Program-made: the position numbers and the translations under genes
In this document: one piece after another, positions 1 to 39,837 of the stretch
How positions within the stretch are numbered: position 1 is the first letter of the stretch
How the letters are laid out: each line of letters opens with the position of its first letter
Notes under the pieces: generated by a model
Told to the model about the DNA's origin: nothing
What the model saw: only the letters and a program-made list of their open reading frames with translations
Database searches by the model: none
From: a virus
Direction: 5' to 3' (one strand)
Length of the DNA: 39,847 nucleotides
Virus record (IMG/VR): IMGVR_UViG_3300046167_000580
Span: 1-39,847 of that record

Positions 1-74
1 CCCGCGAATGCGAGCGATTCGTATTTAGATTAGCATCCCGATCCATATCCATATCCGAGCGAGAGAGAGGGGAG
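1..74. repeat. Left copy of direct terminal repeat
   Basis: Bases 1-58 are identical to 39734-39791, and 59-74 match 39822-39837. The right copy carries 30 extra bases between these blocks. A direct repeat at both ends is what a phage packaging linear DNA with redundant ends would show. The repeat opens with a small hairpin (CGAAT at 5-9, ATTCG at 17-21). The true repeat may be longer, because the window starts inside it. Confidence 0.85.
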
Positions 75-168: not shown

Positions 169-184
169 CTATAACGAGTTATGC
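169..184. promoter_or_regulatory. Dispersed palindrome site 1
   Basis: CTATAACGAGTTATGC, one base from a perfect TATAACNNGTTATA palindrome. It overlaps the first DnaA-box-like 9-mer at 179-187, so a protein bound here could compete with DnaA. Confidence 0.6.
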
Positions 185-273
185 ACAGCTTATACACACC
201 TCCAGACTGTCCCTTAAGTATGCTTACGTCTGTGGATAACTACCCCTAAATCTGTGGATAACTATGTGCATAA
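179..273. promoter_or_regulatory. Cluster of five DnaA boxes, putative replication origin
   Basis: Five 9-mers match the DnaA box TTATNCACA: TTATGCACA at 179-187, TTATACACA at 190-198, and on the other strand TGTGGATAA at 231-239 and 253-261 (both exactly TTATCCACA reversed) and TGTGCATAA at 265-273. Five in 95 bases is the density of a bacterial oriC or a DnaA-dependent replicon. Direct repeats (324-551) and AT-rich DNA (about 620-718) follow, completing an origin-like order. That the phage uses host DnaA is inference. Confidence 0.6.
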
Positions 274-294
274 AACGGTACAAATAGTTATACT
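265..294 (+). promoter_or_regulatory. Possible weak sigma70 promoter at the left end
   Basis: TATACT at 289-294 followed by AT resembles the -10 boxes of the two stronger rightward promoters (TATACTAT at each). A poor -35 (TGTGCA, 265-270) lies 18 bases upstream and coincides with the last DnaA box. It would drive rightward transcription through the leader into the first genes. The weak -35 makes this tentative. Confidence 0.35.
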
Positions 295-1232: not shown

Positions 1233-1731
1233 ATGATTATCAAGACAATTGCAGCAACTGATACAACTCCCGAGTCTAGCTCAGTTACTTTCGTATCACC
1301 TTACTCCAACCCTTATGCAATAGCAGCGGCTGGCTCTAGCAACCTTGCTAAGTCTTTCCGAGATGCGCTTGCCAGTGCCAAGACTAACGGCGAGCATCAA
1401 CGAGGACTGCGTATTCATAGGCGTTCAAGAGATCGTTGAGGGCTATGAGGAACTCCAAGACGCTGGCGATACAGATGCAATGAAGAGCTTCAAAGCCAGC
1501 CTTGCTACTCAGTGCCGAAAGCTGAAAGGATTCGGATGCAAGGTACACCAAGGCAAACTTATCGGTACTAAGGTAGGCGCAGGTAAGGGCGCTCAGAAGT
1601 CCGCACTGGTAACGGCTATCGAAAACTTCGAAGGCGCTGCTACTCCTGAGCAAGTGGCGGAAATGCTTGAGCTGGTCACTAAAGCGGCCGCACGTTACGC
1701 AGAGAATGACGGCAAGGCTCTGGCAAAGTAA
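1233..1731 (+). CDS. Hypothetical protein, frameshifted as read
   Basis: I do not recognise this protein. The first frame runs from ATG 1233 to 1439, then coding continues in the next frame to the stop at 1731. Removing one G from the GG at 1389-1390 joins them into about 165 residues. The N-terminal 40 residues are Ser/Thr/Ala-rich. The rest is a soluble, probably helical domain rich in Ala, Lys and Glu (for example EIVEGYEELQDAGDTDAM). There is no membrane segment or known motif. It is the first gene of the rightward arm and is flanked by the related hairpins A and B, so it is probably expressed early. One-base errors are common in this sequence, so the intact form is likely real. Confidence 0.6.
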
Positions 1732-1861: not shown

Positions 1862-1866
1862 TATTC

Positions 1867-1880
1867 TATAACTAGTTATA
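1867..1880. promoter_or_regulatory. Dispersed palindrome site 2
   Basis: TATAACTAGTTATA, a perfect 14-base palindrome, 15 bases upstream of the ATG at 1895 and just after the tRNA-like fold. Confidence 0.65.
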
Positions 1881-1894
1881 AAAGGTAAATTGAT

Positions 1895-2189: not shown

Positions 2190-2411
2190 ATGGGATTGGA
2201 TTTTGAAAACTTTGACCGTATAGTACAAAAGGCAGCAAAGGACAGAGCTAACATGTCCGAGTACAGGGAGATAACTAACCAGTTAGAATCCGCTGGCCTA
2301 TCGGATATAGAGCGGCGATGTTTGCAGGTAAGATTGGCAGCCCTTGAATCCGAGTCGGTAACAGAAACTATAACCGATAGTGATTACACTAAAGGCTCAA
2401 TCTATAACTAA
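2190..2411 (+). CDS. Hypothetical protein
   Basis: A 73-residue acidic, mostly helical soluble protein. I chose ATG 2190 because AGGTGA lies at ribosome-binding distance; GTG 2181 is an in-frame alternative. The last codons TAT AAC TAA are supplied by palindrome site 3. No recognised domain. Confidence 0.6.
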   Translation: MGLDFENFDRIVQKAAKDRANMSEYREITNQLESAGLSDIERRCLQVRLAALESESVTETITDSDYTKGSIYN

Positions 2412-2416
2412 TTATA
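2403..2416. promoter_or_regulatory. Dispersed palindrome site 3
   Basis: TATAACTAATTATA. It provides the stop codon of the preceding gene and lies just upstream of the AAAGGAAAAG ribosome-binding region of the next. Confidence 0.6.
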
Positions 2417-2430
2417 GAAAGGAAAAGTAG

Positions 2431-2520
2431 ATGACTATCTCGGAATCACTGGTACTAAACACAATGGCACTGGCCATAACCTTAACCCTAGTAATATCAC
2501 AATACGTGGAGACTATATGA
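2431..2520 (+). CDS. Tiny membrane protein
   Basis: A 29-residue ORF, mostly one hydrophobic helix (LNTMALAITLTLVISQYV). AAAGGAAAAG precedes it and its stop overlaps the next start as ATGA, indicating translational coupling to the VWA protein gene. Function unknown. Confidence 0.5.
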   Translation: MTISESLVLNTMALAITLTLVISQYVETI

Positions 2521-4222
2521 TTGATACAGTACCTATGCTATCCGCCCTTCAACGGGTTGCTGGCATCACGCGAACAGGCTTGCACTTTGAGCTTGAGGAT
2601 GATTGCACTCAGCCCCGAACCTGTTTGGAGTCGGGTAAGATATACTGCCGAACTCCTCGGTTCGATTGGACTCAGAGGCAAGTCACTATCTGGCTAGGCG
2701 AGAACTACCACGAAGTAGGCCACCATGCGCCTGAGGTATCCGATGCACTGGAGGGTATGCGGTTCTACTGCGTAGGGTTCGACTCTCGACTCGGTAGGCT
2801 AATCAATATCCTTGAGGATTGGCGTAACGAGATCAACGGACGGGGCAAGTACATAGGAAGAGATAGTGCCCTATCCGAAATGCAAGGCGACTCCTGCGCT
2901 AGGGGAGCCGCTATGCTGGCCGCTAACCCTAAGGGGATGGCGGATAAGTTTATGCAGGATATCTTTTCTTGGTACTACACTGGCCGTGGCGAGTGGCAGC
3001 CCCATGTTACTCTGCCAGCAATAGAGTTCGCGAAGTACTCTCATGGTGAACGCTTCAACGAATTCTATAACGAGTTATGGAATATGGTTACCTTCGAGGA
3101 TGTCTACAACCTAGCCATTGCTTTGTTCGATGCCGACCCTGATAGTGATTCCGAAGAAGAGAAGCGTAAGGCTGCCGAGGCTGCTGAGTCTGAGGAAGAG
3201 GGCGAAGGTAAGGGCGAAGGCGAGGCTGGTGAAGGTGAGTCCGGTGAAGGCGAGGGCGAGGGCGAAGGCGAAGGAGAAGCCAGCCACGTCAAGTACGAGG
3301 ACATCATATCCCATAAGCACACTGGCGAGGTAGGTGAGTCGGGCGATTACGGAACTATCGAGTACGATGACGATACATATCACACCTATATCCCCTATCA
3401 GGAGCATGAGACTATGCGAATGAAGGCTCGTGACTTAGACCCTCCGAGGGCTAGGCTCTGTGAGCTAACCGCGATGACGGCTATGGCTGAGAAAGGTAGC
3501 AAGTTAGGTATGAAAGCCAAGCGGTTGTTTCAGTCGAAAACTCAGAGCCGAGTTGAGCGAAACCTTAAGCGAGGCCGACTCGATAGGAAGGCATTACACC
3601 GGATCGCAGGTGGTGCGGTTGATGTCTACTCCAAGAAGGTGGATCGTATATCCTGCGAGAACACCGTCCTGTACCTGTTAGTCGATGCATCTGGTAGCAT
3701 GACAGGCGATAGATTCAACTGTGCCGCCGCAGCCGGAGCACTGATGACAGAGGCCATGCTACCGTTGAAGGTTCCGGTTAAGATCAGCGCCTTTACTGAG
3801 AGAACTGTTTGGCATGGTATGGAAAGCCAAGAACAGCTACAAGACTACGTTATCAAGGACTATGCCGAGCATAGACCCCGAGCTAAGATACTCGAGGACT
3901 TCAATAAGGTTATCCCAAGCTGCACCAAAACGCAGACGGTGATTCCCTTATGTTGGCCTTCCGTGATATCATGGCTAGGAAAGAGAAGCGTAAGATTCTT
4001 GTTGTTCTCTCAGACGGTATGCCCTGTAGTGATCGGGCAGGTAGTACCGATAAGTTCCTTAAGGACGCTGTTAAGTATGTGGAGTCTAGCCCTGTCGAGC
4101 TTTATGCGATAGGTATCGAGTCTCGCTCTGTTAAGCACTTCTACTCGAACTTTGAAGTACTCTCACGGGTATCTGACCTTGAGCCTTGCTTACTTAACCT
4201 TGTTAAATCTAAATTCATTTAA
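2517..4222 (+). CDS. CobT-like VWA protein with zincin-like domain, frameshifted as read
   Basis: About 568 residues after repair. Residues 65-69 are HEVGH, a zinc-protease-type HExxH motif, followed at 98-105 by ILEDWRNE, which could supply a third ligand. Residues about 208-256 are a low-complexity Glu/Gly linker. A von Willebrand A domain follows with a MIDAS motif DASGS at 390-394. The first frame stops at 4112; coding resumes in another frame with NADGDSLMLAF and ends at 4222. One missing A in the AAAA at 3927-3930 explains this. CobT-type VWA proteins work with CobS/MoxR-type AAA+ ATPases, and such an ATPase is the next gene. In phages this pair is known but its role is unclear; cobalamin synthesis is not implied. 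Palindrome site 4 lies inside at 3066. Confidence 0.8.
3066..3079. promoter_or_regulatory. Dispersed palindrome site 4 (intragenic)
   Basis: TATAACGAGTTATG inside the VWA protein gene, where it encodes part of FYNELW. One base off a perfect palindrome. Confidence 0.5.
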
Positions 4223-4225
4223 TTC

Positions 4226-4239
4226 TATAACTAATTATA
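4226..4239. promoter_or_regulatory. Dispersed palindrome site 5
   Basis: TATAACTAATTATA in the short gap between the VWA protein gene and the AAA+ ATPase gene. Confidence 0.65.
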
Positions 4240-4254
4240 GACTGGAGAAAACCT

Positions 4255-5409
4255 ATGACGACCGAACTTGAGCGTGATGAAAGAGAACCCATGTACGATA
4301 CATCCTTTACTACTGAAGTTACTGAACCCACTTACCCTACTGGAGAAACACCTATGTCTGATGACCTGATTAACGATATCCTCGGCGTAACACATAAGCT
4401 TGTTACTGATGCGGATTACCCTGCACCTGAGCCTGTGGAGGAGCCTGTAGCAGAGGAAACTCCCACCCTTGAGGGTTACACTAAGGTAACCGAGGATGGC
4501 GCTATAATGCAAGCCAAGCCCTTTGAGGAGGTGTTCGGCTGGGAGCCTAAGGTTCCTCACCTCGTTAAGACCTATGACTATGATGTCCCTGCCCCAATGG
4601 CGGGCTACATCCTCGATAAGCCCATGATCGAGAACTTCTCCCTCTGTGAGTCACTCGGCCTTAAGCAGAACGTAACAGGGCCAACTGGTTGCGGTAAGAC
4701 TCAGCTAGTCGAGTGGTACGCTGCAATGACAGGCCGACCCTATATGCGAATTGCTCACACTGAGTCGTTCGACAAAGGTGGAGATATTCGGTCAGTGTCA
4801 GATCACAGGCTGGCGACACTAACTTCGAGCTAGGTGTTCTGCCTCGGACATTCGACAAGGCTTACTTGGTACTTCGGTGACGAGATCACTCGTACCCCAG
4901 CAGGGCCTCTAATGACCTACGGCACACTGTTGGATAGGCGGGAGCTTATCCTTCCTGAGATGAAGGACGCTGGCATAGAGCCTCTGAAGCCCGTTGAAGG
5001 CTGGTCATTCGTGGCTGCCGATAACACTAAGGGTAACGGTGACGGCATGGATAAGTACATCGCCTCTAACGTACAGGATTCGGCCTTCCTGAACCGGTTC
5101 GATATCGTACATGATATGGACTACCTGTCCACTACCGCTGAGACTGCTATGCTGACAAGTATGGGTATGACCGTTACTAATGCTGCAAAGCTGGCAGGTG
5201 TATCCGCCCTGCTGCACAAAGGTAACAAGTCAGGTACTCTCACTTGCGACTTCTCGCCTCGTAACCTCCAAGCTATCGCTAAGTTGGTAGGTGCTGGCCT
5301 GAAGATGGATCAGGCTTTTAAGATGAACTACCTGAGCCGAGTAACCGAAGCCGAGCAGACTGATGTACGGGAAACCTACAGGGCTGTAACAGGTGTAGTC
5401 CTCGACTAG
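4255..5409 (+). CDS. CobS/MoxR-like AAA+ ATPase, frameshifted as read
   Basis: About 384 residues after repair. The N-terminal 70 residues are acidic and Pro/Glu-rich. Walker A is GPTGCGKT at 142-149, and the DEITRTPAG segment after YLVL is a Walker B/MoxR signature. ALNRF-type sensor sequence appears as AFLNRFDIVHDMDY. The frame breaks three times within 4788-4874; each break is mended by removing one T (at about 4788, 4811 and 4874). MoxR-type ATPases remodel partner complexes with a VWA protein, and that partner is directly upstream. A second ATG at 4354 is in frame and has an almost identical upstream sequence (ACTGGAGAAACACCT) to the first, so a shorter form lacking 33 residues may also be made. 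Confidence 0.8.
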
Positions 5410-5415
5410 GCGGTT

Positions 5416-5449
5416 TATAACGAGTTATAGAAAATTATAGCGAGTTATA
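5416..5449. promoter_or_regulatory. Tandem palindrome sites 6 and 7
   Basis: TATAACGAGTTATA at 5416-5429 and TATAGCGAGTTATA at 5436-5449. Their centres are exactly 20 bp apart, about two DNA turns, so two bound proteins would lie on the same face. They sit upstream of the -35 box at 5461, a usual position for an activator; co-operative repression is also possible. Confidence 0.7.
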
Positions 5450-5460
5450 GCAAATAGTTC

Positions 5461-5489
5461 TTGACAGGATTGGGGATGCGCGGTATACT
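5461..5489 (+). promoter_or_regulatory. Strong sigma70 promoter for the replication genes
   Basis: Consensus TTGACA at 5461-5466, a 17-base spacer, and TATACT at 5484-5489. Tandem palindromes lie immediately upstream. A run of 11 C (5527-5537) occurs in the leader, about 125 bases before the next gene. This should be read by the host polymerase. Confidence 0.85.
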
Positions 5490-5662
5490 ATATCTAGGGA
5501 AGACGGGAAAAAAGAGCCGCGCAAATCCCCCCCCCCCAGAGTATTAGATACTAAGATACTTAGGGTGGCTTAACATCCTAGATTATTTAGGTAACGAGAG
5601 AGGCACTCTGCCGATACAGAGTCTCACGAAGTGTAAACAATAAACTTAAACAAGGTAAACTT

Positions 5663-5875: not shown

Positions 5876-5999
5876 AAACAACTATGAAGTGGATACATCC
5901 TACGACCGAGATCATGGTGAGGTCATAATGATAGACGTTGACGAAGGCCCTATCTTTCTAACCCGTGAAGACCTGCAAGCAATGTTGGAGATGTTATGA
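5865..5999 (+). CDS. Small hypothetical protein (GTG start)
   Basis: A 44-residue acidic protein beginning with GTG 5865, eight bases after AGGGGG. It overlaps the previous gene by 11 bases and the primase gene by ATGA. The C-terminus IFLTREDLQAMLEML looks helical. Its packed position supports it being a coupled small gene. Confidence 0.5.
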   Translation: MITENNYEVDTSYDRDHGEVIMIDVDEGPIFLTREDLQAMLEML

Positions 6000-7636
6000 G
6001 CAAGCACCCTTGCCCTAAATGCCGAGCCGATGGGAGAGATAGTAAGGGCGATAACCTTACCATCTTTCCTGAGGGTAACGGCTACTGCCATGCTGGACAT
6101 GGCTCAATACCTAAACACGAAATGGAGGGACTACCCCCACCTGTTAGCGATGTGTACGAGTCGAGCTATCACAAGCTGACACCGCCCGAGGTACTGTCCT
6201 ACCCAATCGGTACTTCTCCTGATCGTAAGATATCAGAGGCGGTTGCCGAACTGTACGGGGTTAGGTTCAGTACCCACCCTGTAACTGGTGCGGCCGATGA
6301 AGTTTTCTACCCACACCACGAACGAGCCAGCAGTTCTATAACTGGTTATAAAGTACGGGGCCTACCTAAGTCTTGGAAGCCTAGCGTAGGCGGTAAGCCT
6401 GTACAGGTATTCGGTAAGCACACCTGTAAGGGCGCGGGACGGCCCCTGCTGATCGTTGAGGGCGAAGAGGATGCAATGGCAGCATACGAGTGCTTTGCTA
6501 AGGCTCCCGCCATTAAGGTCGATGTGGTGTCCCTGCCTAACGGGGCAAACTTCTCCAGCGTAGTAGAAGATGACTACGGTTTCTTTGAAAGCTATAAGAC
6601 TGTGGTGATCGCTCTGGACGCTGATACCGTTGGGTTGAAGTGCCAAGAACAGATGGCTGATTGGATGAGTGCCATTACTACCGTTAAGACGGTGACCCTT
6701 GACCCTGAGGTAGGCAAGGACGCTAGCGACTACTGGGTATCTGGTAACTACAGCGAATATCGCAAGGCGGTACGAGCCGCTAAGGAGTATGAGCCTGATG
6801 GAATTGTTAATGGCGCTGACATTGATCTGCGTGACCTACTGGTTCCTTTACCCGAAGGAAACAAAATCCCTTTTGCGGGGATTCAGAACAAGCTGCACGG
6901 AGTTCGCAAGGCTGAGATTCTTACGGTCTGTGCTGGTAGTGGAATTGGTAAGTCTACTGTTGTTCGTGAGTTCACTAAGTCTCTTATTGAGGAAGGTCTT
7001 TCAGTTGCTAACGTAGCACTAGAGGATCAGATGCAAGTGGCGGCCCAAGCGTTGATAGCTCTGGACATGGAAATACCGTTGGCGAAGTTCAGGTACAATC
7101 CTCCTGACTTTGAGGTGGTTAAGCCTCACCACGATAAGATGGTAGGTAACGGCAACACGTATTTCTATAAACACTTTGGTGGGCTTACTAGTGATACGTT
7201 GATGAACAAGCTGTACTACTACGCCAAGACCAAGAAGGTAGACTACATTGTTCTTGACCACCTGAGCATGGTGATCTCTGCCTCTGAGGGCAACAACGAA
7301 CGCAAGGACATTGACACGCTTATGACGCAGCTAGCAAAGATGGTTGTAGAAACAGGCGTTGGCCTAATCCAGATCGTTCACCTTAAGCGGTCAAGCGGCG
7401 ATAAGTCTTTCGCTAAGGGCGGTGAGGTAGAGCTTACTGACTTGCGGGGTAGTGCGGCCCTTGAACAACTCTCATGGGCTGTACTGGCTCTCGAGCGTGA
7501 TCAACAATCGGAGGACTCCCGTAACGAAATGAAAGCCCGGGTACTGAAGAACAGAACATGGGGCTACACTGGTCTATGCGATCACCTGAGGTACGATCCC
7601 GAAACAGGGAGAACTAAATCAATAGAGAGAGAATAG
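5996..7636 (+). CDS. T7 gp4-like DNA primase-helicase
   Basis: A 546-residue bifunctional replication protein. The N-terminus carries a zinc-binding motif (C6, C9, then C31 with H32/H35), as in phage primases. A TOPRIM motif LLIVEGEEDAMAAYE lies near 150-165. The C-terminal half is a DnaB/RecA-type helicase with Walker A AGSGIGKST near 313-321 and Walker B YIVLDHLSM near 416. It should unwind DNA and synthesise primers for the adjacent DNA polymerase. Length matches T7 gp4 (566). Palindrome site 8 lies in the coding region. The polymerase gene follows two bases after the stop. Confidence 0.93.
   Translation: MSKHPCPKCRADGRDSKGDNLTIFPEGNGYCHAGHGSIPKHEMEGLPPPVSDVYESSYHKLTPPEVLSYPIGTSPDRKISEAVAELYGVRFSTHPVTGAADEVFYPHHERASSSITGYKVRGLPKSWKPSVGGKPVQVFGKHTCKGAGRPLLIVEGEEDAMAAYECFAKAPAIKVDVVSLPNGANFSSVVEDDYGFFESYKTVVIALDADTVGLKCQEQMADWMSAITTVKTVTLDPEVGKDASDYWVSGNYSEYRKAVRAAKEYEPDGIVNGADIDLRDLLVPLPEGNKIPFAGIQNKLHGVRKAEILTVCAGSGIGKSTVVREFTKSLIEEGLSVANVALEDQMQVAAQALIALDMEIPLAKFRYNPPDFEVVKPHHDKMVGNGNTYFYKHFGGLTSDTLMNKLYYYAKTKKVDYIVLDHLSMVISASEGNNERKDIDTLMTQLAKMVVETGVGLIQIVHLKRSSGDKSFAKGGEVELTDLRGSAALEQLSWAVLALERDQQSEDSRNEMKARVLKNRTWGYTGLCDHLRYDPETGRTKSIERE
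6337..6350. promoter_or_regulatory. Dispersed palindrome site 8 (intragenic)
   Basis: TATAACTGGTTATA, inside the primase-helicase gene, encoding SITGY. Confidence 0.5.
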
Positions 7637-7638
7637 GT

Positions 7639-9537
7639 ATGAGATTCGTAGTATTGGATATAGAGACTGACTTTGAGTGGTCTAGGGTGGACATGGTGGG
7701 GTTGTATGACCCCCTTTCTAAGGAAGGGCTGTGCGCTAAGAATCCCGAGGAGGTTCTCATGTTCTTGGGTGATAAGGAAACAACATTGGTCACTTGGAAC
7801 GGGGCGAGGTTTGACCTCCCATTGCTTGAGCGGATATGGGACTTAGACTTAAGCCATCACGAACACCTTGACGGTATGTTGTTGCAGAAGCTGATGATGC
7901 ATGGCGTACCCGGAGGTCACAGCCTAGAGGCAGCAGCGAAGCGTATGTTCCCGAGGGACAAGTCGCTCTGGAAGGCTGAGATAGATTTCTTAGAGGCATC
8001 GCCAAGCGCGTTAGAGGAATACTGTATACAGGATTGCAAGGTAACTTGGGCGGTTGTTAAGGAGCACCTCCTAAGCACCCTGTACACCTCTAACAAGAAT
8101 GCTTGGAAGAAGGCCCTTAAGGTAGAACAGAAGGTAGCTAAACTGGTAGACAAGCAAGTGCAGGAGGAAGTGTTCTTCGATACTGCTAGGGGCAAGCTGG
8201 CGTGGTCAACTATCTGTCACCAGATGGATGACATCGAGAGTGCCGCAGAGGAGTGGCTACCCACTGTCCAATTACCGGAGTCTAAACTTCATTACCCCCC
8301 TAAGGTACAGTTCAAGAAGGACGGCACCCCTTCAATGAATGTGCTTAAGTACTGCACCAAGTACGGCAGGAAGGTCATTAAAACAGATGGCATTTATCAC
8401 ACCGATGATGCCCAGTTGCTGCCACTGACTAAGCCGTTTATAACTGATTATAAAATCGAGATGCATAATCAGGCAGAGCTTAAGGATTGGCTGCTAGCTA
8501 AAGGTTGGGTTCCTACAGAGTGGAACACTAAGCGCAACGAGGAGACAGGTAAGTACGAGAACACCTCGCCTCGCTTAACCAACAAAATAAGCAAGGAACC
8601 TTGTTCAGGTCTAGCACTAATGGGCTTTCCTCACGCAGCAGAAGTCTCCCGATGGTTGATGCTACGGAGCCGTAAGAACATTCTGAAGTCCGATAAGGGT
8701 ACGGGCTGGATACCTAAGGCAGAAGCATCGCCTACCTCTAGCATCCCATCTGATGCGGATAGCATGGGGGCTAACACTTGCCGCTGGACTCACAAGGTTA
8801 TCGCTAACGTACCGAGAGTATCCTCAGAGTTCGGTGATAAGATCAGGGACTGCTTTAGGGCAAGGGAGGGTAAGGTATGGGTAGGCTGGGATGCGTCCTC
8901 TCTGGAGGCTTGTGTTGAGGCTCACTATACATTCCCGTATGATGATGGCGAGTATGCAAGGGAACTCATGGACGGGGACGTTCACACCAAGAACCAGTTG
9001 GCACTGGGACTACCGAGTAGGGACTTAGCTAAAACCTTCAAGTACGCTATCACCTACGGTGCTCAACCTAAGACTCTGAGCAAGACTCTAGGCGGTACTG
9101 AAGCTGACGCTAAACGTGTGTACGAGGAGTTCTGGGTTGCTAACCCTGCACTTACTAAGTTGAAGTCCGACCTTGTTAAAGAGTGGGAGATTAACGATAA
9201 GAAATATATCAAGGGTCTGGACGGACGTAAGATATGGACTCGCTCGGAGCATTCACTTATTAACGCCCTGTTCCAATCGGCAGGGGCTGTTATAATGAAG
9301 TACAGTATGTTGATAGCAGATCACTGGATAGGCAAGTGTTATTGGGCAGGGCTTGATATGCCTAAGGGTTTGATCCGCTATCACGATGAGGAAATTTGGG
9401 AGTGTGATAATGTACAGGCAGAAACAGTATCCACACTGGGGATTAATAGCATCGTTGAAGCTGGTAAGCAGTTGGGTTTGAATGTACCCCTCTCCGCTGA
9501 TGCAAAGATAGGTCAGTCTTGGGCTGACGTGCACTAA
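7639..9537 (+). CDS. T7-like family A DNA polymerase
   Basis: A 632-residue replicative polymerase. Proofreading exonuclease motif LDIET is at residues 6-10, with TWNGARFDLPLL as the second exonuclease motif. Polymerase motif A (WDASSLEACVEAH, Asp about 417), motif B (RDLAKTFKYAITYGA, Lys about 465) and motif C (RYHDEE near 580) are all present, in T7 order. The protein is shorter than T7 gp5 (704) but appears complete. It sits directly downstream of the primase-helicase with which it should act. No phage RNA polymerase accompanies it. Confidence 0.95.
   Translation: MRFVVLDIETDFEWSRVDMVGLYDPLSKEGLCAKNPEEVLMFLGDKETTLVTWNGARFDLPLLERIWDLDLSHHEHLDGMLLQKLMMHGVPGGHSLEAAAKRMFPRDKSLWKAEIDFLEASPSALEEYCIQDCKVTWAVVKEHLLSTLYTSNKNAWKKALKVEQKVAKLVDKQVQEEVFFDTARGKLAWSTICHQMDDIESAAEEWLPTVQLPESKLHYPPKVQFKKDGTPSMNVLKYCTKYGRKVIKTDGIYHTDDAQLLPLTKPFITDYKIEMHNQAELKDWLLAKGWVPTEWNTKRNEETGKYENTSPRLTNKISKEPCSGLALMGFPHAAEVSRWLMLRSRKNILKSDKGTGWIPKAEASPTSSIPSDADSMGANTCRWTHKVIANVPRVSSEFGDKIRDCFRAREGKVWVGWDASSLEACVEAHYTFPYDDGEYARELMDGDVHTKNQLALGLPSRDLAKTFKYAITYGAQPKTLSKTLGGTEADAKRVYEEFWVANPALTKLKSDLVKEWEINDKKYIKGLDGRKIWTRSEHSLINALFQSAGAVIMKYSMLIADHWIGKCYWAGLDMPKGLIRYHDEEIWECDNVQAETVSTLGINSIVEAGKQLGLNVPLSADAKIGQSWADVH
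8439..8452. promoter_or_regulatory. Dispersed palindrome site 9 (intragenic)
   Basis: TATAACTGATTATA, inside the DNA polymerase gene, encoding FITDYK. Confidence 0.5.
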
Positions 9538-9541
9538 GCAG

Positions 9542-9570
9542 TTGTAAAATTAACTAAAACATGTTATACT
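9542..9570 (+). promoter_or_regulatory. Sigma70 promoter for the SSB-like gene
   Basis: TTGTAA at 9542-9547, a 17-base spacer and TATACT at 9565-9570, followed by ATATATATAC. It lies in the 73-base gap after the polymerase gene, 40 bases before the SSB-like start. The -10 region matches the promoter at 5461. Confidence 0.75.
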
Positions 9571-9610: not shown

Positions 9611-10132
9611 ATGGCGACACAAAAAGGCACAATCGAAGCGATCTCTCACAAGTACGAGAAGTTTGCAGTTCTTATCGAGGAGAAGTGGTACAATACTAAG
9701 GCGGAGTTCGCAGCAGAGTGGCCCGTCAAGCCTCAGGTTGGCGATGTAATCCAGTTTGATGACGGCGGCAAGAAGTACTTGAGCCGTATGGAGATCATCT
9801 CCAGCAGCGCACCTGCTCCTGCTGCGGGTAAGTCGGCACCTAAGTCAGGCGGTTACTCTAATCTGGGTGTCGAGGTAGGCCATGCGTCTAACCTCGCCAT
9901 GCGTATGATGGAGCAAGTTGGTTTTTCTTCTTCGGACGTAGGTACTCCTGAGTACTACAAGCAGTTCGCTAAGTACACACAAGACGTGTACAAGCTGATG
10001 GCTGGCCTTAAGAAGAAGCTGGGTGAGGCCCCTGAGGAAGCCCCTGCCCCTACGGTAGAGGCCAAGCCTGAGCCTAAGCCAGAGCCTAAGCCTGAGCCTG
10101 TAGCTGAGGATGACCTGTCCGACCTGTTCTAA
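9611..10132 (+). CDS. Probable single-stranded DNA-binding protein
   Basis: A 173-residue protein. The first 65 residues are rich in aromatics and beta-type segments (EKWYNTKAEFAAEW, VGDVIQF), consistent with an OB fold. A Pro-Ala linker, a helical section and a Pro-Glu-Lys repeat follow. It ends in an acidic tail with terminal Phe (EDDLSDLF), as in bacterial and T7 SSBs, where the tail recruits partners. Its own promoter suggests abundant synthesis, and it lies between the polymerase and exonuclease genes. Assignment rests on architecture and context. Confidence 0.75.
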   Translation: MATQKGTIEAISHKYEKFAVLIEEKWYNTKAEFAAEWPVKPQVGDVIQFDDGGKKYLSRMEIISSSAPAPAAGKSAPKSGGYSNLGVEVGHASNLAMRMMEQVGFSSSDVGTPEYYKQFAKYTQDVYKLMAGLKKKLGEAPEEAPAPTVEAKPEPKPEPKPEPVAEDDLSDLF

Positions 10133-12074: not shown

Positions 12075-12241
12075 TATACACAGTAACCGTTAAATCTATA
12101 ACTCATTATAGCTACCGTAAACTTGACGCGATCTACAAGCACGTTACCTTCAAGTACAAAGATCGTGCAAGGTTCCGAGAGTTAACCGAGAAACAGTTCG
12201 CTGCCATGAAGAAGCAAGGGAATAAGATGGTGGAGATATGA
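12071..12241 (+). CDS. Small basic hypothetical protein
   Basis: A 56-residue protein rich in Lys, Arg and Tyr (SITHYSYRKLDAIYKHV). It contains palindrome site 11 in its coding sequence and is coupled by ATGA overlaps to both neighbours. No recognised domain. Confidence 0.55.
   Translation: MIYTVTVKSITHYSYRKLDAIYKHVTFKYKDRARFRELTEKQFAAMKKQGNKMVEI
12097..12110. promoter_or_regulatory. Dispersed palindrome site 11 (intragenic)
   Basis: TATAACTCATTATA, 26 bases inside the small gene that starts at 12071, encoding SITHYS. Confidence 0.5.
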
Positions 12242-12408: not shown

Positions 12409-12718
12409 GTGCATACCTTGCCATACAAAGTATCGCGATCCTTACGGCAGAGCCAAGCGTAGAGTCCACGGGCAGGGGAACAAGATCAACAGTTCCAGAG
12501 CTACGTGGATAGAAACCAACGGCCCTATAGAAGAGGGTTTGGTAGTAAGGCACACCTGTGATAACCCCGAGTGTGTGAACATCGACCACCTCTTGCTGGG
12601 TACTCAGCAGCAAAATATTACTGACTGCGTAGTTAGAGGTCGAAGAGCAAAGCAAGACGGTTCAAACAATTCAAATTGGAAGGGCGGTATATCCCCCGAA
12701 TGGAGAGCAACATTATGA
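12401..12718 (+). CDS. HNH endonuclease, homing type
   Basis: A 105-residue protein with the HNH_3-type core VVRHTCDNPECVNIDHLLLG then TQQQN. The key residues are H51, C53/C58, H63 and N72. Free-standing HNH nucleases of this kind are common mobile genes in phages. AGGAGGAAGGAAG precedes the start. Its stop overlaps the metallophosphoesterase start as ATGA, which argues that it is well integrated in the operon. Confidence 0.82.
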   Translation: MSECIPCHTKYRDPYGRAKRRVHGQGNKINSSRATWIETNGPIEEGLVVRHTCDNPECVNIDHLLLGTQQQNITDCVVRGRRAKQDGSNNSNWKGGISPEWRATL

Positions 12719-13481
12719 GTACACATTTCGTTATTCCGGACACCCAAGCTGCACCCGGCCATCCCGATGATCATATGACGTGGGCTGGTAAGTATGCGGT
12801 TGAACAGAAGCCTGATGTAATTATACACCTAGGTGACCATTTCGATATGCCTTCACTGTGCAGCTACGATAAGGGCAAGGGTAGCATGGAAGGTAAGCGT
12901 TACCTAGCAGATATCAAGGCGGGAAATAAGAGCATGGATAAGTTCATGGCTCCCATTCTGAAAGAACAGAAGCGACTTCGAAAGAACAAGAAGACTATAT
13001 GGAACCCGCGCCTAGTGTTTATCATGGGCAACCACGAGCAGCGTATCGAGAGAGCCATTAACGATAACATCCAGTTAGACGGCATCCTCAGTTACGATCA
13101 CTTCAACCTTAAGGAACACGGCTGGGAGGTTATCCCCTTCCTCGAGGTCGAGGTAATTGATGGTGTTGCTTACTCGCACTACTTCACTAGTGGCGTTATG
13201 GGTCGGCCTGTTCAAGTGCTAGCCGTCTGATGCTGACGAAGAAGCACATGTCCTGTGTGATGGGCCATGTTCAAGACCGCGATATCGCATTCGCTCGTAG
13301 GGCAGACGGTACTCAGATGACAGGCTTGTTCGCAGGTATCTTCAACCAGCACGATGAGGGTTACCTTAACCCACAGACCAACCTTAGCTGGAGCGGTGTG
13401 TGGATGCTACACCAAGTAACGGACGGGAGTTTCGATGAAATGCCCGTGTCAATGGACTTTCTACGCAGGAGCTATAACTAG
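12715..13481 (+). CDS. Calcineurin-like metallophosphoesterase, frameshifted as read
   Basis: About 255 residues after repair. Motifs of the family are visible: IPDTQ near residue 7, HLGDHFD near 38, GNHEQR near 104, YSHYFTSG near 155 and GHVQDRD after the break. The first frame stops at 13230; coding resumes with SSASRLMLTKKH. One missing T at the TT at 13211-13212 explains the break. Enzymes of this family hydrolyse phosphomonoesters or phosphodiesters; the substrate of phage versions is unknown. The final codons TAT AAC TAG are part of palindrome site 12. Confidence 0.82.
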
Positions 13482-13486
13482 TTATG
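13473..13486. promoter_or_regulatory. Dispersed palindrome site 12
   Basis: TATAACTAGTTATG. It spans the stop of the metallophosphoesterase gene, and its last three bases are the ATG of the next gene. Confidence 0.6.
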
Positions 13487-13697
13487 GATGCATACAACGA
13501 GGACATGATGCAAGCAATTGCATCGCAAGTGAAGAGCGCACAGACTGACGCAATCCATGAGGCCCTTGTGGCTTCAGGTTGTTCTTGCAGGGATCAAGGC
13601 AGGGGCACGAAGGGATGAAGACCCCGTGTCCGTAGCTGATGAGGTGCTCTCAGACTTTAAGTTCAGGTTCGAAAACAACGGAGGTACAATCCAATGA
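13484..13697 (+). CDS. Small hypothetical protein, frameshifted as read
   Basis: About 70 residues after repair. The first frame from ATG 13484 stops early; the rest reads VVLAGIKAGARRDEDP and on to a TGA at 13697. Removing one G from GG at 13570-13571 joins them. The product is helical and acidic. It overlaps the next gene as ATGA. No family recognised. Confidence 0.5.
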
Positions 13698-15788: not shown

Positions 15789-15791
15789 TTC

Positions 15792-15805
15792 TATAACCTA
15801 TTATA
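15792..15805. promoter_or_regulatory. Dispersed palindrome site 13
   Basis: TATAACCTATTATA, directly upstream of the leftward holin gene and overlapping the stop of the preceding small gene. Confidence 0.6.
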
Positions 15806-15935
15806 AAGTTTGAACTTCTACACATACATTGAATGCAGAGAACGACTCCCAAGACTTACATGTGCTCTCAGAAGTTGTTGACGCTACAGTGTACGGCCCA
15901 GTGGTAAGGTACACCACAAGCATGAAGGTAATCAT
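15801..15935 (-). CDS. Small exported protein in the lysis region
   Basis: About 44 residues from the ATG at 15935, chosen because it overlaps the previous stop as ATGA. A hydrophobic start (MITFMLVVYLTTGPYTVA) looks like a signal peptide, followed by a short tail with two cysteines. Located between an XhlA-like protein and the holin, it may be a spanin-type component, but there is no clear lipobox. Confidence 0.5.
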   Translation of the reverse strand: MITFMLVVYLTTGPYTVASTTSESTCKSWESFSAFNVCVEVQTL

Positions 15936-16464: not shown

Positions 16465-19211
16465 TACTCATCCTTCCAGTAGTACTTATAAAAGTCACCC
16501 ATCATAGGGAATTTCTCTACAATAGCATCATCCCACTCACCCTCGAATAGCATGGCATCGAAGGCGCTTACAAGGCTCTGCGCTGCCGCTCCCTGTAAAC
16601 CTGTAGGGGGTAGCCACGCAGTCATCAGGAACTTCACAGGATCATCTGCGAAAGACTCAGCACTGTATGCATCTCCCATCTTGTTAAGGGTAGCCATAGC
16701 TGCAACCTGTTCTGCCACATCAATCATGAAACCCTCTGGCGTAGGCTCCTCTCTTTTGAAGATAGCCTCCCTTGATTGGTTAACCAAGCCGTAACCACCC
16801 CCAGCAAACACAGCGTACCTTGCTAGTACTGCTGCCTTCTGTGCGGGGCCTTTAGCATCACGCATCTGTCGAGCTACCATTGCTCGCTGCTTAATAGCGA
16901 AGCCTGTTAGGGCGTACAGAGGTCTAGCATAAGGAACCTTGAGGTAGTTAAGTGGCCTACCTGCCTGAGAGATAAGCTGCTGCTTACCTAAGGCGGTGAA
17001 TGCCATCTCCTCAATGATATCAGCAGAAGCCTTTGGAATCTTGGAGAGTTCAGTGCCTTCCTCGAGATACTTTCTGACCTTGATCAGCTCTTCCCTAGAA
17101 GCGATGTCATTGAATTCCCGGTGCAGGTTACCCTTCTTGGCTGCATCACGCATCTTGTTGACTGCTGCACGTAGTACTACACCCTTACCAATCTTATCCA
17201 TCGCCTTAAACGCTGACCACTTCATACTGGCTTCGGTCACGTCCCTAGAACCCTTAGCGAACTTGTCAAGTGCACTCGGATTAGATACAAGGTTATCGAG
17301 ATTGTTGACGAATTCTCCAGTACTCTGAGCGTCACCTATGCCGAGTTCCTCAAGGGACTTACCGAACACCTGCTTATTAGACTGCACTGCTGCCTTAAGC
17401 GTAGGACGCACACCATTAGTATGCATACTTACGAATATATCGTGCAGGTTCAATGCAGAAGTCTTAAACTGTGCTAACGTACCAGCATAGGAGCCAGACA
17501 TAAAGGCGCGCATCAGCGGAGGAGGACTCTTACGGCCACCCTCATATGCTTGACGCATGATCTCAGCAGCACCCTCTGCTCTGTCTAGGTCTATACCATC
17601 CCTGTTGAGCTTCTTAGATACCTCAGCAAAGAACTCATTAAACCCATCTCTCTCAGCCATAGAGGGGCGGAGCTTAAATTGCCTTTGCATCTCAAGCAAC
17701 TGTTCCTGCTCGGCAAGGTACTTCAGGTGGCTAACCAGTACGTTGTCATACTGTGCTACGTCCTCAGGTGCCATATCGTCTGTAAGCTGACGAGTACGAT
17801 CCTGAATAGCATCTACCTTAGAGCTATCTGAGGAGCCGAACCTGCCTACTGACTCCTTCATGCTGTGGGTCTTAACTGGGCGCTTGTTAGTATGCAGGTA
17901 CAGATCGTCCTGCTTGAAAGCACCGGGTTTGAAGATGCGCTTGTTAGCTTCAGCAACCCTACTCTGACTGAAGGCTATGAACTTGTTGAACGCCTTAAGG
18001 TCGTCAGTGCCGATGTTATCACGGATAAAGGTCTGTAACTTAGCTAGGTTCTCAGGCTTCGTATGCAAGTCCAGAAACAGCTTGTTAAGCTCAGGTCGCT
18101 GGTCTACAGCACGGATTACACGCTTCATAGGTTCAGCATAGTCCCTCACCAACGCTGTACTAGCTCGCATAGCTGTCTCGTTAGCTCGCTCATACACGCC
18201 ACCGACCTTAGAGTCTATATGCTTACTGATCATGTCAGCTACAGGGGTGAAGGTCTTGGAGAACCAACCGGGGTTAGTGCCAGTACCATCAGCTTTAGTG
18301 AACTGCTTGTCCATAGCAGCTAGGTCATCCATCGTGTAATCAGGGAAGCGCAACCCACCCTTCTTACCGATAACCTTAAGGGCGTTAGCCCCGTCTACGC
18401 CTTGATCAGTCAGGTCATTTATAACTTGTTTTAAACTCACCGTGTCGATAGGAGTCATAGCTTCTTCCAAAGCATCGTCTGAGGAACCTATCTTTTCAAG
18501 GTCATCATCAAACTGTTTAGCTGCTTCTTCAGCCCTTTCAAACCTCGCTCTGTTACCGTCAACCAACTGACGATTACGCGAAGCCTTAGCAGCCTCCCAT
18601 ATCTCTCCGTCAGTCTTTGGAGCCTTGAGTGCAACATTGTCTGCTTGCTTTGCAGCGGCCATGCTTGCTTTGTATGCAGCGGTAGCGGCATCGTCCGTAG
18701 ACATCCCAAAACCAGCGATATCCTGTAGTACAGAAGATGTGGTTCCCGCAGCACGAGTGACTGGTACAAAACCAGCAGCAGCAGGGACAGTGGCACCAGC
18801 GCCACGGACAGCATCCCTAGCAGTACCCTTTTCCATATAGTCGTTACCCAGCACACCTCCTTCAACTAGCTTATCCTCCAAGCGCGGGAAAGCCCCCGGC
18901 ATAGCAATATTACCAGCGACACGAACAGGTGCAGAAAAGAAGTCTGCCATCTGAGCTACACCACGGTGAGCGCCCTGAGCAAACTCGCCAGCTACGTCAA
19001 GAGCATCATCCACCAAAGAATCCCCTGACGATACAGGGGCGGACTCTTCTTCTTGGGCCTTCATCATGGCCTCGACACGGGCTATTTCGCTCTCAAGTTT
19101 AGGGATAAGCATCTCTTTTTCCAGTTTATCATCATGATCTTCATCAAGTTGATTAAGCTGGATGTCTAGCTGTACTCTCTCTATCTCCTTCTCAAGCTCT
19201 TCTATTGTCAT
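16464..19211 (-). CDS. Large internal virion (DNA-ejection) protein
   Basis: A 915-residue protein. A coiled coil fills residues 1-55, then Ala/Gly-rich hydrophobic patches (AGATVPAAAGFVPVTRAAG), long helical stretches and a hydrophobic C-terminal region (AVLARYAVFAGGGYGLV). Size, order (last of three large genes after the tail proteins) and composition match podovirus ejection proteins such as T7 gp16, which enter the cell with the DNA. I see no lysozyme or transglycosylase motif. Stop/start overlaps with both neighbours. Confidence 0.7.
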   Translation of the reverse strand: MTIEELEKEIERVQLDIQLNQLDEDHDDKLEKEMLIPKLESEIARVEAMMKAQEEESAPVSSGDSLVDDALDVAGEFAQGAHRGVAQMADFFSAPVRVAGNIAMPGAFPRLEDKLVEGGVLGNDYMEKGTARDAVRGAGATVPAAAGFVPVTRAAGTTSSVLQDIAGFGMSTDDAATAAYKASMAAAKQADNVALKAPKTDGEIWEAAKASRNRQLVDGNRARFERAEEAAKQFDDDLEKIGSSDDALEEAMTPIDTVSLKQVINDLTDQGVDGANALKVIGKKGGLRFPDYTMDDLAAMDKQFTKADGTGTNPGWFSKTFTPVADMISKHIDSKVGGVYERANETAMRASTALVRDYAEPMKRVIRAVDQRPELNKLFLDLHTKPENLAKLQTFIRDNIGTDDLKAFNKFIAFSQSRVAEANKRIFKPGAFKQDDLYLHTNKRPVKTHSMKESVGRFGSSDSSKVDAIQDRTRQLTDDMAPEDVAQYDNVLVSHLKYLAEQEQLLEMQRQFKLRPSMAERDGFNEFFAEVSKKLNRDGIDLDRAEGAAEIMRQAYEGGRKSPPPLMRAFMSGSYAGTLAQFKTSALNLHDIFVSMHTNGVRPTLKAAVQSNKQVFGKSLEELGIGDAQSTGEFVNNLDNLVSNPSALDKFAKGSRDVTEASMKWSAFKAMDKIGKGVVLRAAVNKMRDAAKKGNLHREFNDIASREELIKVRKYLEEGTELSKIPKASADIIEEMAFTALGKQQLISQAGRPLNYLKVPYARPLYALTGFAIKQRAMVARQMRDAKGPAQKAAVLARYAVFAGGGYGLVNQSREAIFKREEPTPEGFMIDVAEQVAAMATLNKMGDAYSAESFADDPVKFLMTAWLPPTGLQGAAAQSLVSAFDAMLFEGEWDDAIVEKFPMMGDFYKYYWKDE

Positions 19212-21848: not shown

Positions 21849-23519
21849 TAATTGATCCTTCCTATGAGTGTCTGTACGTTGACTTCCTGAAGTGAAACAG
21901 TGTTCCCTTGCACTTCGGTTTCTAAACCTATAACCAGTGATTCACCTGAACCGCCTGTATTAACCCTGTATCGTTTGATTAGCTCGTCTGAGGAACCGTA
22001 ACCACCTGTACCCCATGTCTGTACGCCGTAGTACGCTGCTGGGTTAGCTAGGAGGGATAACCTCTTGGTCTTGTACTCACCTATGTTATCGTACCCGTAC
22101 TTGGCTAGCCCTATGCTATCGAACTGCCCACTGATAATTGTGTAGTCAACCTGCTTAACGATCTTAGTCTTGGCTGGCTCTCCGAAGTTCATTGGGTTAC
22201 TGTAGTACTTGAACAGGTAAGGCTCGTCATCATACTGCGTGTATCCATCGTACCTCATAATCCCTGTGTTGTTCGAACCACCAAGCAACAGAGTAGGTGA
22301 GTTACCTTCTTCGATGAACTCCATGCTGCTGAAGTTGCAACCTGTCCAGCGAGTAACCCGAGCCACGCCACCTGAGTTATACAGTTTGAGGTCGAGGCAG
22401 TACACTAACTGCTCGGATTCAAAGAGAACCAGAGCGAAGTTATTAGAGCCATCGTACACCATCTTAATTGAGGAGCCGTCTACCTGAGCAATCAGGCTAG
22501 TGATATCTCCACGTACCTTAATTGTAAGGTTGCCCATAGGGGAGGAGCGTTCCTGAATGGTACGAGCCAGTGATCGAACACCTGAGTCATCTACGAAAAG
22601 GATATCAGTACCGATGTTTACGATAGCATCCCTAGATACACAGCCTACGTTGGAGATAGTGTCCTGTAGCGTAAAGCCACTAGCAGGGTCAGCAGGATCG
22701 CCATAACCAGCGTTGTACACCAGTATAGCTTCACGCCCAAATACGATCAGCATGTTGTTGTGAGCTGCTAGGCCTATGATCTCATCTCTACCGTTAGGCC
22801 AGTTCTCTAGTACGTTGATCTTACCAGCAGTAGAGAGAGGGTCTGTCACCGTCCTGAGTGTACCAGCTAGCCCCTATAAGGAGGTCTGAGTAGTAAATTG
22901 TGTTACGGTCACCCTCATGCCCTGTGGCCCATATACGGCCATACGCGGCCATACCACGGTCAAACGTAGGCTCTACGTTACCTGCGCCGTTGTCAATACC
23001 GATGTAGTTAGGGTCATCAGATATGTTAGTAATCACTGACCCATCCCACACCAGAACCTCGTTACCTTCAGAGAAGATATAGAACCTGTCATCTGTGGCT
23101 ACGAGCTGGGCAGTGGCGAGAGTGCTATAATCAGTTATAGTTGGAAGTCCTGCCGCTAAAGACAGTACGGAACCTACTCGCTCAAAGATGCTGTAGTCAT
23201 ATCCCACGATACCGCCGTTAGCGTCATAGCCTGTGTAATGGCCTGTAGCCAATACCTTAGTTACACCGCTAATTATACCTCCCTCAACAACGTCAATATC
23301 TAGCTGGTAGGTGACTGCACCGGGGATAGAGGGTTCAGAGGGGAAGGTGATTGTGTCTTCAGCAAATGCCTTACGCGCACCAATTCGACCAAACTTATCA
23401 ATAACGGCATTGTCAGCTACCGCTACAAAAGAGTGATCTTGCGAGATTGGGGAGTCCTCTGTGTTGATCCCGTTGGAACCAACAGCAGGGACGTTTACGT
23501 TTACTTGGGCCTGTGCCAT
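21848..23519 (-). CDS. Tail/DNA-stabilisation protein (P22 gp10-like), frameshifted as read
   Basis: About 556 residues after repair. The first frame (from MAQAQVNVNVPAVGSNGI at 23519) ends at 22821 and the second continues from about 22849 with STAGKINVLENWPNGRDEI. Removing one G from the GGG at 22839-22841 (+ strand) joins them. The beta-rich sequence with ALAAHNNMLIVFGREAILVY-like strands resembles packaged-DNA stabilisation/tail proteins that close the portal channel. It follows the head-tail connector gene with a TAATG overlap. Function is inferred from similarity in style and position. Confidence 0.7.
23126..23139. promoter_or_regulatory. Dispersed palindrome site 14 (intragenic)
   Basis: TATAATCAGTTATA inside the tail protein gene; on the coding strand it encodes TITDYS, the same I-T-x-Y pattern as the copies in the rightward genes. 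Confidence 0.5.
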
Positions 23520-28296: not shown

Positions 28297-28342
28297 TCTA
28301 TTTCCCTGTATTTGTTTGTTTGTTCACCGTATTAATCTGCCC

Positions 28343-28356
28343 TATAACAAGTTATA
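28343..28356. promoter_or_regulatory. Dispersed palindrome site 15
   Basis: TATAACAAGTTATA, a perfect palindrome in the gap between the capsid and fibre genes, just beyond the capsid-gene hairpin. Confidence 0.65.
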
Positions 28357-28373
28357 AAGCACAGCAATAGGGT

Positions 28374-39458: not shown

Positions 39459-39487
39459 ATTATACCATGTAAAAAACCGAAAGTCAA
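39459..39487 (-). promoter_or_regulatory. Strong sigma70 promoter for the structural genes
   Basis: On the minus strand TTGACT (39487-39482), a 17-base spacer, then a perfect TATAAT (39464-39459). A degenerate copy of the genome palindrome (39518-39531) lies upstream. No other strong leftward promoter is obvious, so this probably drives most of the 24-kb left-reading arm. Confidence 0.82.
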
Positions 39488-39517
39488 CCTTTTTGCTAAA
39501 ATAAAGTTAAAATAATT

Positions 39518-39531
39518 TGTAATTCGTTATA
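39518..39531. promoter_or_regulatory. Degenerate palindrome upstream of the leftward promoter
   Basis: TGTAATTCGTTATA: the right half matches the genome-wide palindrome, the left half differs at two positions. Its centre is 37 bp upstream of the -35 box, almost the same as the distal tandem site at the rightward promoter (38 bp). Confidence 0.4.
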
Positions 39532-39733
39532 AAACACCCGATATAGAGCATAAAAGGTAGAGAAAACAGCATGATAAGACCTTAATAAACCGAGATAGTT
39601 CCGATATCTGGCGTAACTAAATGAATTAGCTGGATTAATTGGGGAAATTAGGGTAGGAGGTTTCAAATTCTACCTTTTGCAAGTGGGAGTGGCACCCCCC
39701 CGAATTGGCCTAGCCACTTCTCCCCCCCGGCCC
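39532..39733. other. Right-end non-coding DNA with C-runs
   Basis: No gene seen. Three runs of 6-7 C lie at about 39695-39701, 39722-39728 and 39731-39736, and GGGAGTGGC (about 39684-39692) can pair imperfectly with GCCACTTCTCCC. The function may be packaging-related, but nothing diagnostic is visible. Confidence 0.4.
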
Positions 39734-39837
39734 CCCGCGAATGCGAGCGATTCGTATTTAGATTAGCATCCCGATCCATATCCATATCCGATCGCTTGCG
39801 CTTAGGCTTCGCCGTATCCGAGCGAGAGAGAGGGGAG
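39734..39837. repeat. Right copy of direct terminal repeat, with 30-base insert
   Basis: Matches the left end (1-74) except for 30 extra bases at 39792-39821. The insert is bounded by direct repeats TATCCGA at 39785-39791 and 39815-39821, so the left copy could have arisen by deletion between them, or by misassembly. Confidence 0.85.

What the first reader, a model, noticed from the sequence alone, without database searches (positions are those of the whole stretch)
5416..5489. Two operators 20 bp apart directly upstream of the replication promoter
The tandem sites have centres exactly 20 bp apart and end 11 bases before a consensus TTGACA-N17-TATACT promoter. That geometry is expected for cooperative binding on one DNA face and for control of replication-gene transcription. 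The distal site centre is 38 bp upstream of the -35 box; the degenerate site at the leftward promoter lies 37 bp upstream of its -35, suggesting one regulator for both arms.
Basis: partly seen in the sequence, partly recalled or inferred. Interest (0 to 1): 0.8.

Follow-up and report, generated by a model that had tools for sequence, protein, structure and literature searches.

The report
Dispersed palindromic operator sites in phage
The two 'operators' in front of the phage's replication promoter are real, but they belong to a set of about 18 copies of one DNA palindrome spread roughly every kilobase along the early half of the genome, which looks like a genome-wide control system for early genes rather than a single paired switch.

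Summary
In detail: 16-bp palindromes TTATAACGAGTTATAG (5415-5430) and TTATAGCGAGTTATAG (5435-5450), centres 20 bp apart, lie 10 bp upstream of TTGACA-N17-TATACT (5461-5489). The promoter is conserved in four relatives. The tandem is a local 20-bp duplication within a genome-wide family, YTATAAC-N2-GTTATAR: 18 copies against about 2 expected, concentrated in the rightward early arm and over-regularly spaced. Coding copies show selection at synonymous sites. Relatives carry the family with a 2-nt or 3-nt spacer. One site near the replication promoter is conserved in two relatives at different distances but the same helical phase. The pair, exact distances and leftward-promoter copy are not conserved. 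In three phages a copy fills the -35/-10 spacer of the ssb promoter. Pair statistics argue for recognition as DNA, not as an RNA hairpin. Best reading: a dispersed, stoperator-like operator array read by one dimeric protein that silences or times host-RNA-polymerase transcription of early genes in an apparently lytic podovirus-like phage. The protein is unidentified; the first early gene, which co-occurs with the sites, is a candidate. Binding, direction of effect and cooperativity are untested.

The parts
5415..5430 (.). Distal palindromic site TTATAACGAGTTATAG
5435..5450 (.). Proximal palindromic site TTATAGCGAGTTATAG, tandem duplicate of the 20-bp unit
5461..5489 (+). Replication-operon promoter TTGACA-N17-TATACT
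   Evidence: conserved in five phages
169..184 (.). Site copy overlapping the first DnaA-type box
1866..1881 (.). Site copy at a gene boundary
2402..2417 (.). Site copy at a gene boundary upstream of the cobT-like gene
3065..3080 (.). Site copy inside the cobT-like gene, conserved in G13
4225..4240 (.). Site copy between cobT-like and cobS-like genes, conserved in G13
6336..6351 (.). Site copy inside the primase-helicase gene, conserved in G13
8438..8453 (.). Site copy inside the PolA gene
9542..9570 (+). ssb promoter TTGTAA-N17-TATACT with a site copy (9554-9569) in its spacer
   Evidence: promoter conserved in relatives; site in the spacer also in G8 and L102
10171..10186 (.). Site copy between ssb-like and exonuclease genes
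12096..12111 (.). Site copy near the start of a 56-aa gene, conserved in G13
13472..13487 (.). Site copy at the end of the metallophosphoesterase gene
15791..15806 (.). Site copy just upstream of the leftward holin gene; G13 has a 3-nt-spacer copy there
18419..18434 (.). Weak site copy, late arm
23125..23140 (.). Site copy inside a late gene
28342..28357 (.). Site copy upstream of the tail fibre gene
39517..39532 (.). Degenerate copy upstream of the leftward promoter; not conserved in G13
39459..39487 (-). Leftward promoter TTGACT-N17-TATAAT, conserved in G13
1233..1731 (+). First early gene (frame-broken in the window), candidate for the cognate protein

Best explanation
SHOWN: the window carries a family of 18 palindromic DNA sites (YTATAAC-N2-GTTATAR), two of which form the tandem at 5415-5450. 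The family is under nucleotide-level selection, is concentrated in the early/replication arm, is spaced more evenly than chance, and lies both at gene boundaries and inside long genes. INFERRED: one dimeric sequence-specific DNA-binding protein reads all of them. At promoters it controls initiation: it would occlude the ssb promoter, where the site fills the -35/-10 spacer, and it would act from upstream on the replication promoter from a fixed face of the helix. At the copies within operons it would act as a roadblock to host RNA polymerase (a stoperator-like role), so that the whole early arm is silenced or timed as a unit, for instance at the early-to-late switch. The cognate protein is unidentified. 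The product of the first early gene (window 1233-1731) is the best candidate, because it is the only early protein shared by all four site-bearing phages whose left end is held, and its two clades match the two spacer classes.
For: 18 sites vs 1.85 expected; strict 2-nt spacer; TATAA-N4-TTATA is the top enriched gapped palindrome in an unbiased scan of the window and G13. Relatives: G13 14 sites with 2-nt spacer, G8 5 with 2-nt and 3 with 3-nt, L102 7 with 3-nt, L103 4 with 3-nt, L160 6 exact with 3-nt, L192 3. DNA rather than RNA: over 54 sites, sense-strand G-U 27 vs A-C 23 (P 0.67); pair counts at variable positions 1 and 7 match independence of the two half-sites. Synonymous-codon test at nine coding sites, P 0.002-0.022 each. 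Even spacing, P 0.002 (window), 0.0004-0.0005 (G13), 0.007 (G8). Early arm 14 of 18 sites, P 0.001; 10 of 18 mostly non-coding where 9.3% of DNA is, P 1e-6. ssb promoter: site centred 19.0-19.5 bp downstream of the -35 start in window, G8 and L102; abutting the -35 in G13. Replication promoter: conserved promoter with a site in the same helical phase in three phages.
Against: No phage-encoded DNA-binding regulator was found by family search. The candidate first early protein has only low-confidence models and no significant structural match. No integrase or immunity repressor was seen, so there is no lysogenic state that would need silencing. Most sites are not at recognisable promoters. Tolerance of 2- or 3-nt spacers is unusual for a rigid dimer. 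Several L102 sites extend into longer RNA-like hairpins. PolA relatives L097-L101 (41-45%) lack the family, so it is not essential to this kind of replication module.
Confidence: 0.5

Rival explanations
1. Transcription-activator sites: the protein bound upstream of the replication promoter recruits host RNA polymerase (class I geometry) and turns on middle genes; the other copies are secondary.
For: Centres at about -53.5/-73.5 (window), -63 (G8) and -84.5 (G13) share one helical phase near that known for class I activators (the class I comparison is from general knowledge).
Against: The promoter is already near consensus; L102 and L103 keep it without a site; in three phages the ssb-promoter site lies inside the core promoter, where an activator would block; most copies are not near promoters.
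Confidence: 0.14
2. RNA element: the palindrome acts in mRNA as a short hairpin next to ribosome-binding sites (translation control or mRNA processing).
For: Many boundary copies touch the Shine-Dalgarno, and in G13 holin, L160 and L192 the SD lies in the 3-nt spacer; L102 copies extend into longer stems; spacer length varies as a loop could.
Against: No covariation and no preference for G-U over A-C at mismatched pairs in 54 sites; conserved copies lie inside genes; the tandem copies lie upstream of the promoter they flank and so are absent from its transcript.
Confidence: 0.13
3. DNA-architecture, segregation or replication-control sites (parS-like or nucleoid-like) spaced along the early arm, with effects on promoters a by-product.
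For: Regular spacing of about 1 kb including copies inside long genes; one copy overlaps the first DnaA-type box of a five-box cluster, conserved with the cluster in G13.
Against: No ParA/ParB-type gene was seen in the proteins scanned; the ssb-promoter placement is conserved and promoter-specific; the late arm nearly lacks sites.
Confidence: 0.13
4. Sites of a host-encoded regulator, used by the phage for timing or imposed on it as silencing.
For: No obvious phage regulator was found; the host is unknown.
Against: The family is tied to one phage clade, the spacer class changes between relatives, and a related phage with a 95% identical holin gene lacks it.
Confidence: 0.1

Closest known systems
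Stoperator systems of cluster A mycobacteriophages (L5, Bxb1, TipsytheTRex)
   Same: One repressor-type site repeated more than 20 times over the genome, in promoters and in short gene boundaries; the site motif drifts between relatives (PMC9283540, PMC6550527).
   Different: L5 sites are asymmetric 13-mers bound by a monomer and oriented with transcription; these are 16/17-bp palindromes, nearly half lie mostly within genes, and the phage shows no sign of lysogeny or of an immunity repressor.
Paired promoter operators of the lambda OR type (general knowledge)
   Same: Tandem palindromic sites about two helical turns apart beside an early promoter.
   Different: The pair is not conserved in relatives and is 2 of 18 genome-wide copies.
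SrpA-binding palindromes of Pseudomonas phage K5 (PMC5945682)
   Same: Palindromic sites in phage promoters, read by a small regulator.
   Different: Motif NTATC-N(0-9)-GATAN, only a few sites, host-encoded protein.

Membership tests
Stoperator system (cluster A mycobacteriophage type) | One site motif repeated many times across the genome | tested here: met
   18 sites vs 1.85 expected
Stoperator system (cluster A mycobacteriophage type) | Sites asymmetric and oriented with transcription | tested here: not met
   Sites are palindromic; only a weak half-site bias, 11 vs 20 mismatches
Stoperator system (cluster A mycobacteriophage type) | Sites in short intergenic gaps as well as promoters | tested here: met
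   10 of 18 mostly non-coding, P 1e-6, but 8 lie mostly in genes
Stoperator system (cluster A mycobacteriophage type) | Phage-encoded immunity repressor with helix-turn-helix | tested here: inconclusive
   None found by Pfam or PHROGs; four window genes are frame-broken and not every ORF was scanned
Stoperator system (cluster A mycobacteriophage type) | Bound sites stop transcription elongation | not testable with these tools
   Needs reporters or RNA-seq
Conserved RNA hairpin family | Compensatory pair changes in the stem | tested here: not met
   Counts at variable pairs equal those expected for independent half-sites; G-U 27 vs A-C 23; no Rfam match
Sigma-70-type promoter at 5461 | Near-consensus -35 and -10 with 17-bp spacer, conserved in relatives | tested here: met
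   11/12 match; CTTGACA and TATA.T invariant in five phages
Cooperative operator pair | Pair with fixed spacing retained in relatives | tested here: not met
   Single site in G13 and G8, none in L102 and L103

The most novel reading that the evidence does not exclude
A lytic podovirus-like phage family uses a genome-wide array of palindromic operators, spaced about 1 kb apart and even written into coding sequence, to silence its whole early arm through one small early protein of a new DNA-binding family: a stoperator-like system without lysogeny, with protein and spacer length co-diverging.
Probability: 0.22. Interest if true: 0.72.

Novelty: new variant of a known kind. Interest (0 to 1): 0.5.

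Why it matters
Dispersed operators that act on elongation are known best from temperate mycobacteriophages. A palindromic version in an apparently lytic phage clade would show that genome-wide silencing is also used for timing within a lytic cycle. Because sites can be counted and their gain and loss followed between relatives, and because only a few candidate proteins need testing, the question is directly open to experiment.

Tried and rejected
RNA-hairpin reading: disfavoured by pair statistics. Close relatives in the phage collection: none by DNA; only remote ones by protein. Searching viral contigs for four TTATAR at 10-bp steps gave mostly AT-rich chance matches. The scan for CTATAACTARTTATAR gave mostly single-site contigs; L192/L209 are true relatives, whereas L212/L220 have no detectable match to window proteins. 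Host from genome contigs: only phage contigs binned into unrelated metagenome bins, so host unknown. No tRNA or Rfam family. Whether the sites are orientation-biased stayed unclear.

Full report
WHAT WAS CHECKED. The window is a 39,847-base virus record. It has a rightward early and replication arm (about 1.2-15.4 kb) and a leftward structural and lysis arm. Family searches identify CobT/CobS-like genes, a T7-type primase-helicase (5996-7636), PolA (7639-9537), exonuclease, endonuclease VII and a metallophosphoesterase on the right, and terminase, portal, major head protein, tail fibre and lysis genes on the left. The gene at 9611-10132 has no family match; it is called ssb here from its position and its acidic ...DDLxDLF tail, which is an inference. 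No phage RNA polymerase, integrase or repressor was seen among the proteins scanned, so transcription is presumably by host polymerase.

THE OBSERVATION. The two palindromes, their 20-bp spacing and the TTGACA-N17-TATACT promoter are exactly there. The two sites form one 20-bp unit duplicated in tandem, 90% identical, which also reads as four TTATAR hexamers at 10-bp steps.

A GENOME-WIDE FAMILY. The motif CTATAACNNGTTATAG has 18 matches at up to 3 mismatches, against 1.85 in shuffles. With Y/R allowed at the ends and up to 2 mismatches there are again 18, and only at a 2-nt spacer; other spacers give 0-1. The two lists differ in one weak member each (21928 in the first, 39517 in the second). 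An unbiased scan of gapped palindromes puts TATAA-N4-TTATA first in the window and in G13. Fourteen of 18 lie in the first 15.85 kb (P 0.001), and 10 of 18 are mostly non-coding although only 9% of the sequence is (P 1e-6). Spacing in the early arm is more even than random (window P 0.002; G13 P 0.0004-0.0005; G8 P 0.007). Long genes have internal copies. Those copies score better than codon usage predicts for the same peptides (P 0.002-0.022 each; orthologous copies are not independent tests). In G8 the primase copy sits at a different place in the gene than in the window and G13, so sites are gained and lost.

RELATIVES. Portal and polymerase searches of viral contigs gave the relatives used here: G13 (L084; primase 72% identical), G8 (L086; 67%), L102 and L103 (PolA 41% and 39%), L160 (portal 52%) and L192/L209 (portal 42%). 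G13 has 14 sites in its early arm at a 2-nt spacer. G8 has both 2- and 3-nt spacers; L102, L103 and L160 have mainly 3-nt spacers. PolA relatives L097-L101 have none, although L099 shares a holin 95% identical to the window's.

PROMOTERS. The replication-operon promoter is conserved in five phages. Sites upstream of its -35: window at 18.5 and 38.5 bp, G8 at 28.0, G13 at 49.5, L102 and L103 none. These distances agree modulo 10.5 bp (P 0.016 for three distances, 0.04 if the proximal window site is used, 0.007 with all four, although the two window sites are not independent). That supports action from one face of the helix but with very few data. The ssb promoter is also conserved. A site occupies its spacer, 19.0-19.5 bp downstream of the -35 start, in the window, G8 and L102; in G13 a site abuts the -35. 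Part of that match is the -10 itself, so it is less surprising than a free-standing site. The leftward promoter is conserved in G13 but has no site there.

DNA OR RNA. Many boundary copies touch the Shine-Dalgarno, and in G13 holin, L160 and L192 the SD is inside the spacer. Some L102 copies sit in longer hairpins. Yet over 54 sites the mismatched pairs are G-U 27 and A-C 23 (P 0.67), and the combinations at the two variable pairs are those expected if each half-site varies alone (expectation worked out from the table). That is the signature of two DNA half-sites, not of a stem. Short intergenic gaps would in any case force boundary sites next to an SD.

THE PROTEIN. The first early gene (window 1233-1731, frame-broken there; intact in G13, L102 and L160) is shared by all four site-bearing phages whose left end is held, and is the only early protein L160 clearly shares with L102. 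Window and G13 have the 2-nt class, L102 and L160 the 3-nt class. This is suggestive only: the sample is small, G8 is cut before that region, and L103 shows no homologue in the stretch held. The models (helices followed by a beta hairpin) are of low confidence and the one searched matches nothing significantly.

MECHANISM. Shown: the site family, selection on it, its distribution, the conserved promoters and their geometry. Inferred: one dimeric protein; repression by occlusion at ssb; upstream control at the replication promoter; a roadblock at internal copies. Direction (repressor or activator) at the replication promoter is not decided by the data.

VERDICT. What is there resembles the stoperator arrays of mycobacteriophage L5 in working principle (PMC9283540, PMC6550527), but fails that family's asymmetry criterion and lacks an identified repressor, so it is not filed as a member.

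Noticed in passing
window 169-275: All five TTATNCACA (DnaA-type) boxes of the window (1.3 expected) lie here, the first overlapping a palindrome copy; all four in the G13 early arm lie at the same place with the overlap kept. Possible host-DnaA-dependent origin between the two arms.
   Followed up: partly
window 5588-5640 (G13 L084 reversed 6034-6090): Leader of the replication operon holds a conserved GGTAACGAGAGAGGCAC.CTGCCGAT stretch that can fold into a hairpin with different pairs in the two phages; also a poly-C run just before it.
   Followed up: partly
window 1233-1731, 2517-4222, 4255-5409, 12676-13481: Four conserved genes are split by frame breaks in the window while relatives have them intact, suggesting sequencing errors in this record.
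   Followed up: partly
window 1-57 and about 39733-39789: The start of the window is repeated near its end, so the record probably closes on itself and the two arms diverge from one control region.
   Followed up: no
L102 3845, 3909, 7142, 12513: Copies of the 3-nt-spacer site are extended by unrelated but complementary flanks into longer hairpins just before ribosome-binding sites.
   Followed up: partly
L212 9838, 10690, 11701, 12966 (also L220): A phage with no detectable match to window proteins carries four near-identical boxes with a TTATAAC..TTATAA palindrome about 1 kb apart, each beside a ribosome-binding-site-like AGGAGG.
   Followed up: no
L099 10098-11124: GDSL and holin genes 86% and 95% identical to the window's next to replication genes only 35-55% identical: recent exchange.
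   Followed up: no
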